Source of the DNA: Desulfuromonadales bacterium
Lineage (GTDB): Bacteria > Desulfobacterota > Desulfuromonadia > Desulfuromonadales > JAGXHI01
DNA length: 33,416 nt
Assembly: GCA_024636295.1 (NCBI GenBank)
Contig: JAGXHI010000034.1
Location: 1 to 33,416, forward strand
Direction: 5' to 3'
The position numbers were made by a program, and so were the translations under genes. A model generated the notes under the pieces. The model did not search any database, was not told the origin of the DNA, and saw only the letters and a program-made list of their open reading frames with translations. Below, one piece after another: positions 1,993 through 4,242 of this stretch. Numbering within the stretch: position 1 is the stretch's first letter; every line of letters starts with the position of its first letter.

Positions 1993-2054
1993 AGTTATAC
2001 CCCCTCTCAGCTGCGCGATATCCCGCCATTGTGGCGGGGGATCACTGGTTATAT
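1993..2054 (+). other. Candidate attI primary insertion site next to intI
   Basis: The 55 bases between the intI start and the first cassette end in a core-like GTTATAT (2048-2054), after which the first cassette begins. A second, directly repeated core-like GTTATAC lies at 1994-2000, touching the intI start. Between them is a hairpin, CCCGCCA-TTG-TGGCGGG (about 2022-2038). attI sites have one recombining core plus direct repeats bound by IntI, and sit at the 5' end of intI, as here. attI sequences diverge so much that this call rests on position and the core only. The hairpin could instead be a transcriptional or translational signal ahead of intI. Confidence 0.45.
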
Positions 2055-2246
2055 TACTTCTTTGATTCGTTCCCTAAGTTCTTCTTTCAGCGCAAAGGTT
2101 CCTGTCTTCGAGTGCTGAGTAAGGTCGTACATCCTAATGTCTGCCAACAAACTCCTCACCCTGTAGTTCTCTGCCTCTAGCGATGCTAAATGGGTGCTCA
2201 TCTCACATGGCCATTCTCCGTCAGTACATTCTCTTTTGGGTGGCAT
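2049..2246 (-). CDS. Cassette 1: small protein of unknown function
   Basis: A 65-residue charged protein, mostly helical, with residues 16-60 (from MSTHLASLEAENYRVRSLLA) compatible with a short coiled coil. It has two cysteines near the N-terminus (C7, C14). No family is recognised. Its TAA stop (2049-2051) is the complement of the TTA at the recombination point of the candidate attI, so the gene ends on base 1 of the cassette. The ATG at 2246 follows a modest ACGGGG ribosome-binding sequence. attC-1 lies just upstream of the gene, opposite to the usual cassette arrangement. A start at internal Met16 has no better signal. Confidence 0.65.
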   Translation of the reverse strand: MPPKRECTDGEWPCEMSTHLASLEAENYRVRSLLADIRMYDLTQHSKTGTFALKEELRERIKEVI

Positions 2247-2259
2247 AAATTACCCCGTA

Positions 2260-2346
2260 ATATAACCATCACATCCACTTGACCAGAAGGATGTTTATTT
2301 AATATTGGCCAGTCTGGTGGCTGGCAAGTGATGCAGGACGTTATAA
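2260..2346 (+). repeat. attC-1, recombination site of cassette 1
   Basis: R'' is ATATAAC (2260-2266) and R' is GTTATAA (2340-2346), imperfect complements. The inner arms are about 2271-2286 (CATCCACTTGACCAG) and 2321-2334 (CTGGCAAGTGATG). They pair except for two unpaired bases in the left arm, matching the extrahelical bases of attC. The extra C on the left arm of the plus strand fixes the polarity as canonical relative to intI. Exchange would occur between G2340 and T2341. Cassette 1 is 2049-2340, 292 bp. Confidence 0.75.
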
Positions 2347-2493
2347 ATTCTTGGCGCAAAAGCACCGCTTTAACCACCTTGGCAGTAATGGCCGCCGCAG
2401 TTTTTCCAAACAGGCGCAGTATTCATCAAAGGCAGCGCGCCGTTCTTCCGCAGTGGCGTCTTTGCTAATCGGTATGATCGGCGGCATTATCAT
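2341..2493 (-). CDS. Cassette 2, third gene: small protein of unknown function
   Basis: A 50-residue protein starting MIMPPIIPISKDATAEERRA, with a basic, cysteine-containing C-terminus (RWLKRCFCAKNL). It starts with ATGA overlapping the stop of the Lar-like gene, and GGAGGGG lies about 7 bases before the ATG, so coupled translation is likely. The segment with DATAEERRAAFDEYCACLEKL suggests one amphipathic helix. Its TAA (2341-2343) is the complement of the first three bases of cassette 2. Longer upstream starts lie inside the Lar-like gene and lack a ribosome-binding site. No family is recognised. Confidence 0.6.
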   Translation of the reverse strand: MIMPPIIPISKDATAEERRAAFDEYCACLEKLRRPLLPRWLKRCFCAKNL

Positions 2494-2705
2494 TTTCCAC
2501 CCCTCCGGTTCCATTCTTTCGCCGCTGGTTCTTCGTCCAACCCCTTCGGGCCATATCCGCCGCAGGTTACGCACATCACGTAATAAAACAGTTCGTCGGC
2601 AGGTAGCTGCTCCAACTCGCCAATCCGTTGAATCCCAGCGTCAGCATCATTCGTAATCTGCAACTCGTCGTCGTTGCCACAGAACGGACATGGTTTTAGT
2701 TTCAT
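2490..2705 (-). CDS. Cassette 2, second gene: Lar-family restriction alleviation protein
   Basis: A 71-residue protein with the Lar pattern: KPCPFCG at the N-terminus (C6, C9), a YYVMCVTCGGYGP block (C45, C48) and a final A-x3-WNRR. The four cysteines should form one zinc ribbon. Lar of the Rac prophage and its phage relatives lessen type I restriction by favouring modification by the host methylase. The gene follows the Ea22-like gene by 4 bases, with GGAGGG inside that gene's end, and overlaps the following gene as ATGA. Family assignment is confident. Anti-restriction activity is inferred from the family, which also contains many uncharacterised members. Confidence 0.82.
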   Translation of the reverse strand: MKLKPCPFCGNDDELQITNDADAGIQRIGELEQLPADELFYYVMCVTCGGYGPKGLDEEPAAKEWNRRGGK

Positions 2706-2709
2706 TGGT

Positions 2710-3105
2710 TCAGCCCTCCATTTCCAATTTTATTCTATCCGCCAGAAACAATGCGCGCCGCACGCTAGTAATCGCATCGGCCTGTTCTTCAATTCTAGTT
2801 TTCTGCGAAATCATCACCTCTAAAGCCAACCTCAAAGCCTTATACATTGCCGGTGCAGCTGCTATAAGCAAGGCGTTATCCAAACTTTGGTAAACCTCAG
2901 CAACAAGCTTGCCGCTGTCCCGCTCAGACACTTGTGAATAAGGGGCACCATTTTTGTAATTTACCAACCAGGCCGGAATCAACGGCCCCCGTTCACAGAC
3001 GTCACAAATGTTCCCATTCGGCACGCCGTGGGCACATTTGTTGTCGCCGGTCTTTAAGTGCTTTTCCGCGAACTCTGCAAACGGCATATCCATATCTATA
3101 GTCAT
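2710..3105 (-). CDS. Cassette 2, first gene: Ea22-like phage protein
   Basis: A 131-residue soluble protein. The N-terminal half carries a Cys/His cluster (CAHGVPNGNICDVCERG, about residues 24-40) likely to bind zinc. The middle holds SLDNALLIAAAPAMYKALRL (about 75-95), the 'aLIAAAPeml.AL' signature common in phage early proteins of the Ea22 type. The C-terminus is helical. The ATG at 3105 follows AAGGGAG. It heads a three-gene unit inside one 907-bp cassette. Function is unknown; the phage-protein class is supported by the signature only. Confidence 0.75.
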   Translation of the reverse strand: MTIDMDMPFAEFAEKHLKTGDNKCAHGVPNGNICDVCERGPLIPAWLVNYKNGAPYSQVSERDSGKLVAEVYQSLDNALLIAAAPAMYKALRLALEVMISQKTRIEEQADAITSVRRALFLADRIKLEMEG

Positions 3106-3147
3106 TTTTGTATCTCCCTTATCGCCCTTCGGGCGAGCGCCAAAAAT

Positions 3148-3253: not shown

Positions 3254-3532
3254 CTCTTGGTTTTTCCCGGTGTCAGCGTTTTCAATTAAATCCCGCCAGT
3301 ATTCAAGTTCGCTGGCATCCCAATCGCTTGTGTCATATCTTGATTTGATTTCCAACAGCCCCTCTTTTTCGGTTGGCCATATTTCTGCCCCGAAACCGCC
3401 GTCGTTATCGTCTATAAGTTTTACGATAGTTTCTTCATTTTTGATTTGTTCCATGTCACGTTCGCAGCAGGTCGTGTACCAATATCCGATCTTTGGTCTG
3501 TCACCATTTTTGAGCATGTCCTTGAGCAGCAT
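3248..3532 (-). CDS. Cassette 3: acidic protein of unknown function
   Basis: A 94-residue acidic protein (from MLLKDMLKNGDRPKIGYWY) with two adjacent cysteines (TTCCERD) and aromatic-rich segments (IKSRYDTSDWDASELEYWRD). I chose the ATG at 3532 because GGAGG lies 5 bases before it. In-frame ATGs at 3544 and 3553 have no such signal, and the one at 3553 lies in the attC-3 R'' box. The TAA (3248-3250) is the complement of the first three cassette bases. The style is that of small phage proteins, but no family is recognised. Confidence 0.72.
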   Translation of the reverse strand: MLLKDMLKNGDRPKIGYWYTTCCERDMEQIKNEETIVKLIDDNDGGFGAEIWPTEKEGLLEIKSRYDTSDWDASELEYWRDLIENADTGKNQEA

Positions 3533-3549
3533 ACTTTCCTCCATGTCTG

Positions 3550-3637
3550 GCATAACCAGCGTAATGCAGCGGACGGAACAACGCTGGTGGTTATTATTCA
3601 GCGGCTATCCGCCGTCCGCTGACCTCAAGCGTTACCT
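3550..3637 (+). repeat. attC-3, recombination site of cassette 3 (identical to attC-5)
   Basis: R'' is GCATAAC (3550-3556) and R' is GTTACCT (3631-3637). The arms GCAGCGGACGG (about 3567-3577) and CCGTCCGCTG (about 3612-3621) pair, followed by CTCAAGCGTTA, the textbook right end of attC. Bases 3551-3633 are identical to 4156-4238 (83 bp). A second, inner pairing, ATAACCAGCG with CGCTGGTGGTTAT, is also possible. Cassette 3 is 3248-3631, 384 bp. Confidence 0.87.
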
Positions 3638-3877
3638 TGCCACCCACCTCTGCCACTCTCGTTCTGCTTTCGACCGGGTGTAATACGAACCCTCCGGCCC
3701 TGCATGGCACTCGCTGCACATCATCGCCCACCAGTAGTGGGTTTTGTCCTGGCTTTCCATCCTTGTTGCCACTGCCATCCCGCCGCATTGGCAAGGTAAC
3801 AAATCGCTCAACGGCGGACTTGCTACGCAAGTCGCGCTCGTCTCGCTCTGCTCTTTTTGGTCATTCTGCTTTTCCAT
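3632..3877 (-). CDS. Cassette 4: Lar-like zinc protein
   Basis: An 81-residue protein with PCQCGG (C29, C31), MMCSEC (C54, C57) and a C-terminal AEREWQRW, the same order as the Lar zinc ribbon with a CxC in place of the first CxxC. The N-terminal 28 residues are low in complexity and are encoded entirely by attC-4 sequence. AGGAG lies 7 bases before the ATG at 3877, so both start and ribosome-binding site lie inside the attC. The TAA (3632-3634) is the complement of the first three cassette bases. Restriction alleviation is inferred. It could equally be another small phage zinc-ribbon protein. Confidence 0.72.
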   Translation of the reverse strand: MEKQNDQKEQSETSATCVASPPLSDLLPCQCGGMAVATRMESQDKTHYWWAMMCSECHAGPEGSYYTRSKAEREWQRWVAR

Positions 3878-3922
3878 GGTTTTTACTCCTCGGGCCGCAA
3901 GCCCGTTAGCTAATCGTTATGT
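3794..3922 (+). repeat. attC-4, recombination site of cassette 4
   Basis: R'' is AGGTAAC (3794-3800) and R' is GTTATGT (3916-3922). The left arm GCTCAACGGCGGACTTGC (about 3805-3822) pairs with GCAAGCCCGTTAGC (about 3897-3910), with the extra C of GCTcAACGG unpaired. At 129 bp it is as long as Vibrio-type repeats, and its loop contains the start of the cassette 4 gene. Cassette 4 is 3632-3916, 285 bp. Confidence 0.8.
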
Positions 3923-4138
3923 GTCGATCAAATCCCGAACGGCATCGCACAAGTCGCAGCCGCAGTCATCATATCCGCCACCATGCTCATCGCTGGTCAG
4001 TACAGCGGCAGATATCAATGGCTCCAAAAACTCAGCCACCTTGTCAACAGCATGGGCCGCTTCGCTCGTCATCATCTTCCCAATAAAATGTTTGTCGGCT
4101 TCGCGCTTTAGCCTGTTCGCCAAATATCCCTTTTCCAT
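3917..4138 (-). CDS. Cassette 5: small protein with a C-terminal CxCxxC motif, unknown function
   Basis: A 73-residue protein starting MEKGYLANRLKREADKHFIG. It has a helical body and a C-terminal GYDDCGCDLCDAVRDLIDT. The three cysteines could join a metal site in a dimer. The ATG at 4138 has GGAGG 6 bases upstream; an in-frame ATG at 4186 lies inside attC-5 and lacks a signal. The TAA (3917-3919) is the complement of the first three bases of cassette 5, as in every other cassette. No family is recognised. Confidence 0.7.
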   Translation of the reverse strand: MEKGYLANRLKREADKHFIGKMMTSEAAHAVDKVAEFLEPLISAAVLTSDEHGGGYDDCGCDLCDAVRDLIDT

Positions 4139-4154
4139 AGTTTCCTCCGGTGAC

Positions 4155-4242
4155 ACATAACCAGCGTAATGCAGCGGACGGAACAACGCTGGTGGTTATT
4201 ATTCAGCGGCTATCCGCCGTCCGCTGACCTCAAGCGTTCTCA
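4155..4242 (+). repeat. attC-5, last recombination site of the array
   Basis: R'' is ACATAAC (4155-4161) and R' is GTTCTCA (4236-4242). Bases 4156-4238 are identical to 3551-3633. The base after GTT is C instead of A, so no TTA stop is formed beyond it, and no further attC follows. This marks the distal array edge. Cassette 5 is 3917-4236, 320 bp. Confidence 0.87.

What the first reader, a model, noticed from the sequence alone, without database searches (positions are those of the whole stretch)
2049..4236. All five cassettes are coded backwards, and each last stop codon is the complement of the recombination core
attC polarity (GTTA on the right, extra C in the left arm) is canonical relative to intI, so cassette genes should read away from intI. 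Instead every cassette gene reads towards it. In all five, the terminal gene's TAA occupies cassette bases 1-3 (2049, 2341, 3248, 3632, 3917), the complement of TTA in GTTA. The attC is thus 5' of, or overlaps, the gene. Any such cassette would be expressed by the phage operon and not by an integron Pc promoter. The five-of-five match suggests a consistent way of making these cassettes, perhaps a class of 'antisense' cassettes adapted to phage operons.
Basis: partly seen in the sequence, partly recalled or inferred. Interest (0 to 1): 0.95.

Follow-up and report, generated by a model that had tools for sequence, protein, structure and literature searches.

The report
Phage integrons with back-to-front cassettes
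In this prophage, and in most of the virus-borne gene-capture arrays (integrons) examined here, the captured genes face the opposite way from those in the bacterial arrays examined, which likely lets the virus's own operon express them and would keep viral and bacterial gene pools apart.

Summary
The window carries a real integron (IntI, attI, five attC) in a prophage; attC polarity is canonical, yet the cassette genes face intI, and the last TAA of all five cassettes is the complement of TTA in G^TTA. The pattern is not local: by ORF length 46 of 58 viral arrays are mostly reversed (6 forward, 6 undecided), against 0 of 30 bacterial arrays (27 forward, 3 undecided); a codon rule gives 46 of 58 against 2 of 30. 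Reversed ORFs encode known proteins (DNA methyltransferases, RtcB, Mom, HNH). TTA-starting cassettes end exactly at TTA in 20 of 24 (window clade) and 39 of 67 (other viral), against 7 of 59 antisense controls. Canonical genes do the mirror image: 23 of 62 stop at TAA of the R'' box. So stop placement is a general cassette trait reflected; the orientation is the new part. Best reading: intI stays co-directional with phage transcription and attI fixes attC polarity, so only cassettes with the gene antisense to attC are expressed. A separate phage cassette pool is suggested, not shown. Transcription and recombination are untested. The papers searched listed no report of this.

The parts
997..1992 (-). 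intI, integron integrase; same strand as the phage genes on either side
   Evidence: TIGR02249 410 bits vs cut-off 265; residues 5-328 aligned to IntI of PDB 2a3v
1993..2048 (.). attI; crossover at G2048^T2049
   Evidence: similarity with seven phage loci stops at 2050-2055; GTT at a like distance from intI in 11 clade loci
2049..2340 (-). cassette 1; gene 2049-2246 (65 aa), TAA at 2051-2049
   Evidence: no useful family hit
2260..2346 (+). attC1
   Evidence: scanner score 15.4, below the best shuffled score
2341..3247 (-). cassette 2; genes 2710-3105, 2490-2705 (Lar-like), 2341-2487; last TAA at 2343-2341
   Evidence: PF14354 E 4.3e-13; phrog_1273 E 5e-7 for 2710-3105
3148..3253 (+). attC2
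   Evidence: score 24.7
3248..3631 (-). cassette 3; gene 3248-3553 (likely start ATG at 3532 behind GGAGG)
   Evidence: codon model 20.6 vs 2.7 for the minus strand
3550..3637 (+). attC3, core identical to attC5
   Evidence: score 24.3; 100% over 83 bases with 4156-4238
3632..3916 (-). cassette 4; gene 3632-3877, weakly Lar-like; start codon inside attC4
   Evidence: phrog_599 E 0.007 over residues 24-77
3794..3922 (+). attC4; its loop carries GAGGAG and the ATG of the cassette gene
   Evidence: score 19.8; related attC in L221 and L231 with other bodies
3917..4236 (-). cassette 5; gene 3917-4138 (73 aa) behind GGAGG
   Evidence: codon model 12.4 vs 4.6 for the minus strand
4155..4242 (+). attC5, end of the array (core GTTCTCA)
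   Evidence: score 19.3
84..842 (-). terminase small subunit-like gene downstream of intI
   Evidence: phrog_57 E 2.2e-4
4605..6122 (-). DnaG-like primase gene upstream of the array, same strand
   Evidence: TIGR01391 N-terminal match E 2.8e-12, below its cut-off
6483..8240 (-). P4-type phage primase gene, same strand
   Evidence: TIGR01613 193 bits vs cut-off 108.7

Best explanation
This is a prophage-borne integron whose cassette genes lie antisense to their attC sites and point towards intI, so they would be transcribed by the phage operon that runs through the array and not by a cassette promoter beside attI. Shown: intI, attI position, attC polarity by sequence, gene direction, and the same layout in most viral arrays sampled and in no bacterial array by the length rule. 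Inferred: (1) intI is kept co-directional with phage transcription; (2) attI lies 5' of intI and fixes the polarity of every inserted attC; (3) so a cassette whose gene runs with attC, as in bacteria, would be antisense to phage transcription, while a reversed one is expressed; (4) selection therefore filters cassettes by orientation and would build a separate phage pool. Each reversed cassette looks like a ready-made operon segment: attC as 5' leader, Shine-Dalgarno motif and start about 20 bases from R'', gene body, and a stop provided by the complement of the core (TAA from TTA) or of the spacer (TGA from TCA). A minority of phages appear to meet the same conflict by turning intI round, with the array 3' of intI and genes running with attC.
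For: Arrays by length rule: viral 46 reversed, 6 forward, 6 undecided; bacterial 0, 27, 3; Fisher p 1e-15, arrays not all independent. Codon rule: viral 46/5/7, bacterial 2/23/5 (reversed/forward/undecided). Polarity: in the 8 clade loci used, all 27 attC sites score higher on the canonical strand; for the 117 IMG/VR sites this was partly a selection rule. Coding: 10 of 10 reversed ORFs chosen from the 20 longest match PHROGs; 8 of 10 match Pfam, 6 above curated cut-off. Phage nature: one flank protein from each of 19 reversed loci, 16 match PHROGs, 12 of them packaging or structural. Geometry: 36 of 38 reversed IMG/VR arrays lie 5' of intI with canonical polarity; 4 of 6 forward viral arrays lie 3' of intI. 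Neighbours: of the nearest ORFs 5' of 42 reversed arrays 48 of 64 run with intI, and 55 of 80 after intI. Large terminase is the first or second ORF after intI in 9 of 16 loci scanned there. Isolated phage H101 (NC_029094): four attC on +, the annotated genes among them on -. First reversed gene has a Shine-Dalgarno match of 4 or more bases in 110 of 138, median 21 bases from start to R''. On an IntI tree without undecided rows the reversed state needs 5 changes, at least 2 forced by well-supported branches.
Against: No transcription or recombination data; no promoter was tested. DNA folding does not prefer the bottom strand. attC1 is weak. The codon model of 32 clade cassettes forward (one of them, L041:5291-6220, is a reversed DNA methyltransferase by homology), 9 of 78 GTDB cassettes and 2 bacterial arrays (L181, L190, one decided cassette each) reversed. 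Not all phages fit: TJE1 and Shewanella M16-3 have ordinary-direction cassettes, L023 and L085 are canonical, one array of L092 faces away from intI. Only 23 of 38 reversed IMG/VR arrays have more than half of the wider flank co-directional with intI, and 16 of 64 nearest upstream ORFs are not, so an uninterrupted operon is not general. Viral-contig calling may itself favour co-directional genes (recalled).
Confidence: 0.7

Rival explanations
1. Stop-codon supply alone explains the stop rule: GTTA and the spacer TCA are conserved for recombination and give antisense frames a stop, so reversed genes end there because they must, without any special design.
For: Canonical genes do the same at R'' (23 of 62). 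Reversed genes end at -7 (TGA from TCA) in 20 of 117 IMG/VR cassettes. Control antisense ORFs ending near the boundary lean to the TTA frame too, 8 of 15, p 0.09.
Against: It does not explain why genes are reversed in viral arrays. Control antisense ORFs end at TTA in 7 of 59 cassettes, against 20 of 24 and 39 of 67.
Confidence: 0.5
2. Mirrored attC: an ordinary cassette circle (gene, TAAC, hairpin, GTTA, start) became a phage cassette when the unpaired bases moved to the other arm, so that crossover occurs at the stop-side core and attC is left 5' of the gene.
For: The circular order of parts is the same in both types, and stops sit in a TAAC core box in both.
Against: No intermediate was found. 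attC similarity between cassettes with unrelated bodies ends at R'' in viral and chromosomal arrays alike, which fits de novo joining of gene and attC equally well.
Confidence: 0.3
3. The arrays are fossils in which orientation no longer matters.
For: No activity was measured; a DUF5131 fragment follows the array.
Against: Different first cassettes behind nearly the same attI in related phages; the same 326-base cassette at 97% in two phages at different places; consistent gene direction.
Confidence: 0.08
4. attC polarity was misread and the arrays are ordinary ones whose top strand recombines.
For: Fold energies do not separate the strands.
Against: The attI boundary puts the crossover on the intI side of cassette 1. 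27 of 27 clade sites tested score higher on the canonical strand. 36 of 38 reversed IMG/VR arrays agree in polarity relative to intI although strand was scored without reference to intI.
Confidence: 0.06

Closest known systems
Phage-borne integrons and CALINs (Qi et al. 2023, PMC9892861; text parts 1-4 of 7 read, the rest is references; figures and supplements not seen)
   Same: intI, attI, attC and cassettes in phage genomes; methyltransferase cassettes; both PH101 sites and one of two P12002L sites recombined with IntI1, bottom strand better than top
   Different: The text read does not mention genes antisense to attC; [quoted passage not shown] My scan puts the annotated genes of PH101/H101 and MW202573 on the strand opposite to attC.
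Sedentary chromosomal and class 1 integrons
   Same: IntI family, attI at the 5' side of intI, attC polarity and core boxes; stop codons often in a core box
   Different: There cassette genes run away from intI and are served by Pc (PMC11023631, passages); here they run towards intI.
Reverse-oriented intI of Spirochaetota (mentioned in one passage of PMC9668308; details of the layout recalled)
   Same: intI and cassette genes point the same way
   Different: There intI is turned; here intI and attI are in the usual place and the genes inside the cassettes are turned. Rctr41k (KX853513), L063, L073, L090 and L110 resemble that layout more.

Membership tests
Integron | IntI integrase | tested here: met
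   TIGR02249 above cut-off; residues 5-328 match PDB 2a3v
Integron | attI next to intI | tested here: met
   similarity boundary at G^TTA in seven loci
Integron | attC with R and L boxes and an extra base in one arm | tested here: met
   five sites; attC1 weak
Integron | cassette genes running with attC, away from intI (usual, not universal) | tested here: not met
   ORFs ending at all five cassette starts read towards intI; homology in cassette 2
Integron | recombination activity | not testable with these tools
   needs a strand-specific attC x attI assay
Integron | cassette promoter Pc | not tested
   no promoter scan was run
Inverted-intI (Treponema-like) integron | intI turned relative to attC polarity | tested here: not met
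   array lies 5' of intI with canonical polarity
Prophage-borne element | set among phage replication and packaging genes | tested here: met
   primase genes upstream, small terminase-like gene downstream
Antisense-cassette phage integron (proposed) | most cassette genes reversed relative to attC | tested here: met
   window: 2 of 5 reversed by length, 3 of 5 by codon model, none forward; 46 of 58 viral arrays

The most novel reading that the evidence does not exclude
Phages run their own integron world: integrases co-opted more than once, often parked beside the terminase genes, loading operon-ready antisense cassettes rich in DNA-modification and anti-restriction genes, from a cassette pool that is orientation-incompatible with the bacterial one. 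In some of these cassettes the attC hairpin itself supplies the Shine-Dalgarno motif and start codon.
Probability: 0.5. Interest if true: 0.9.

Novelty: new variant of a known kind. Interest (0 to 1): 0.82.

Why it matters
Integrons are known as bacterial devices with one reading direction. A phage form with the genes turned round, found on more than one branch of the IntI tree, would show that the cassette system has been adapted to viral transcription. It predicts two cassette pools that cannot usefully exchange genes without turning a cassette round, and it would give phages a swap-in store that includes counter-restriction genes. It also matters for annotation: pipelines that assume genes run with attC would misread these arrays.

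Tried and rejected
Fold energy as a test of strand: not informative. The first control set mixed viral contigs with bacterial loci; it gave 90 reversed, 89 forward and 57 unclear cassettes and was split by source before any conclusion. A first-pass hairpin scanner gave 23.7 hits per strand on shuffled windows and was replaced by a profile trained on 30 rows out of 105 candidate sites from 80 GTDB loci and three viral loci (L023, L024, L026). 'Stop at TTA as a special cassette-making mechanism' was dropped when canonical genes showed the mirror image. A first tree count (7 changes, at least 4 forced) was inflated by undecided rows; without them it is 5 and at least 2. attC3 as a link to chromosomal cassettes: found only in the window's own array among 277 genomes of the class. 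Relatives of cassette proteins in viral contigs: for cassette 3 only the same phage; for cassette 4 a 30-residue match in three contigs.

Not counted: clade loci L011, L012, L013 and L016 (too little sequence 5' of intI), L009 (same sequence as the window from base 84), L050 and L051 (partial intI). First cassettes behind attI are counted only for the clade. At least one attC of the G018 array, seen by eye, was missed by the scanner. Four near-duplicate cassettes were merged. Detection thresholds differ: 13.5 for the clade, 15 elsewhere. The 'viral' arrays include two clade loci from same-order genomes: G018 (portal gene nearby) and G103 (a 4.9-kb contig, phage nature not shown). The bacterial loci were not checked one by one for being free of phage genes.

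Literature: searches listed no paper on antisense cassettes as a class; only open-licence papers are held, and figures and supplements were not read.
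Full report
What is there. Window 997-1992 (minus) encodes an integron integrase (TIGR02249, 410 bits against a cut-off of 265) whose residues 5-328 align with the IntI of PDB 2a3v. To its right lie five cassettes. Replication genes lie upstream on the same strand (DnaG-like 4605-6122, below its cut-off; P4-type primase 6483-8240) and a small-terminase-like gene downstream (84-842, phrog_57, E 2.2e-4). 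The window is contig C61 of a 3.55 Mb genome of 68 contigs. Integrases this close to the clade were found in 3 of 277 genomes of the class at E 1e-140.

attI and polarity. Seven viral loci share intI and its flank with the window up to 2050-2055, the G^TTA of the first cassette; in L018 and L041 the similarity ends earlier (1981, 1523), and L012 and L016 stop at their contig ends. A profile scanner finds the five attC sites on the plus strand (15.4, 24.7, 24.3, 19.8, 19.3; best of 616 kb shuffled 16.5). By eye the extra base is in the left arm in each, C three times and G twice. DNA folding does not separate the strands.

Gene direction. Minus-strand ORFs end at TAA = complement of TTA at all five cassette starts. 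Homology supports the direction in cassette 2 (Lar protein, PF14354, E 4.3e-13; phrog_1273, E 5e-7) and weakly in cassette 4 (phrog_599, E 0.007). Shine-Dalgarno-like motifs precede starts in cassettes 2-5. By length cassettes 1 and 3 are called reversed, by codon model 2, 3 and 5; none is called forward, and cassette 4 is undecided under both.

The clade. Among the 120 best database hits the first 37 are 63% or more identical to this IntI and the rest 59% or less. Eleven loci have enough sequence 5' of intI: the window, eight viral contigs, and one locus each in two same-order genomes (G018, G103). They give 32 distinct cassettes; 24 start with TTA, and in 20 the last reversed gene ends exactly there. 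Where the core is GTTC or GTTG the stop lies elsewhere. One 326-base cassette is shared at 97% between L014 (place 1) and L041 (place 3).

The survey. IMG/VR loci with IntI 40-56% identical to the window's were first taken as controls and turned out to show the same pattern. By length rule, arrays: viral 46 reversed, 6 forward, 6 undecided; bacterial (GTDB and same-order genomes) 0 reversed, 27 forward, 3 undecided. By codon rule: viral 46/5/7, bacterial 2/23/5. Non-redundant cassettes by length, reversed/forward/unclear: IMG/VR 86/22/38; clade 17/1/14; GTDB 4/57/17; same order 0/9/0. By codon model: 96/18/32; 23/3/6; 9/49/20; 0/7/2. Arrays from near-identical integrases are not independent. 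36 of 38 reversed IMG/VR arrays lie 5' of intI with canonical polarity; the exceptions are L027 and one array of L092. Four of six forward viral arrays lie 3' of intI, with genes again running with intI; the other two, L023 and L085, are canonical.

Are the reversed ORFs genes, and the contigs phages? Ten of ten reversed ORFs picked from the 20 longest match PHROGs: RtcB, five DNA methyltransferases, two radical-SAM and two PAPS-reductase-like proteins. In Pfam 8 of 10 match and 6 pass the curated cut-off, among them Mom, HNH and two DNA methylases. One flank protein from each of 19 reversed loci was scanned: 16 match PHROGs, 12 being portal, large terminase or head-tail proteins. The large terminase is the first or second ORF after intI in 9 of 16 loci scanned there. 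Of the nearest ORFs of 100 aa or more 5' of 42 reversed arrays, 48 of 64 run with intI; after intI, 55 of 80. Of six named phages examined, three are reversed (virulent H101, four attC; MW202573, five attC; P12002L, one attC), TJE1 and Shewanella M16-3 are ordinary in direction, and Rctr41k has a turned intI. Qi et al. 2023 (PMC9892861, parts 1-4 read) reported both PH101 sites (same accession as H101) and one of two P12002L sites active; which strand they called bottom in sequence terms I could not see.

Stop placement. TTA-starting cassettes end at TTA in 20 of 24 (clade) and 39 of 67 (reversed IMG/VR arrays), against 7 of 59 antisense cases in forward bacterial arrays, 8 of which had no antisense ORF of 45 aa (Fisher p 5e-11, viral sets pooled). 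Of ends near the boundary, the TTA frame takes 20 of 22 and 39 of 59 (p 3e-8, 3e-7); in the control 8 of 15 (p 0.09), so part of this lean is built into the boundary. Another 20 of 117 IMG/VR cassettes end at offset -7, where spacer TCA gives TGA. In bacterial arrays 23 of 62 forward genes with TAAC in R'' stop at that TAA. The stop rule is the mirror image of an ordinary cassette trait.

Evolution and pool. On a tree of 69 integrases without undecided rows the reversed state needs 5 changes, at least 2 forced by well-supported branches. In the 75-row tree the window clade (13 rows: the window, viral contigs and the two same-order genome loci) has support 100/99. Among 151 viral and 87 bacterial cassette proteins, all 31 homology rows between different loci join viral arrays. 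There were no bacterial-bacterial rows either, so the missing viral-bacterial rows are weak evidence for separate pools.

attC as leader. In cassette 4 the start codon and GAGGAG lie inside the attC4 loop. The weak Lar-like match begins at about residue 24, near R'', and the first later ATG lies inside that match. Related attC sites in L221 and L231 carry a similar start region before unrelated bodies, though L231 leaves the shared frame before R''. attC similarity ends at R'' in chromosomal arrays too.

Mechanism. Shown: layout, polarity by sequence, coding direction, phage setting, contrast with bacterial arrays. Inferred: operon expression, selection on orientation, separate pools. That bottom-strand choice normally serves correct orientation for Pc is stated in PMC11023631 (passages). 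Not known: how reversed cassettes arise.

On checking I lowered two odds: best explanation from 0.75 to 0.70 and novel case from 0.60 to 0.50, because the forced number of changes fell to 2, bacterial-bacterial homologies were also absent, the flanks are only mostly co-directional, and the codon rule finds two bacterial arrays reversed.

Noticed in passing
window 1-36: Reads like an Illumina Nextera transposase adapter (recalled, no call names it); the matching viral contig L009 starts at window 84, so the first bases are probably a contig-end artefact.
   Followed up: partly
window 4293-4448: A DUF5131-like N-terminal fragment (E 8.8e-6, below cut-off) follows the last attC, possibly a gene cut by the array.
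   Followed up: no
L222 (KX853513) 4680-10101; L063, L073, L090, L110: Phage integrons with the array 3' of intI, attC and genes running with intI: a second layout that also keeps genes co-directional with intI.
   Followed up: partly
L020, L022: IntI 51-52% identical to the window's in viral contigs of 32 and 55 kb; the first-pass scan showed no attC within 5.6 kb 5' of intI in L020 and one weak distant hit in L022.
   Followed up: no
window 3794-3922; L221 4189-4318; L231 2955-3085: An attC family whose loop carries a Shine-Dalgarno-like motif and start codon ahead of unrelated gene bodies.
   Followed up: partly
G000:C11:91878-92288 and G000:C53:26783-28030: Pieces of further IntI-like genes in the same genome; no attC above score 16 in the stretches taken.
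   Followed up: partly
contig ends of L010, L011, L012, L013, L014, L016: These viral contigs break within 26-839 bases 5' of intI, as would be expected if arrays differ between members of one phage population.
   Followed up: no
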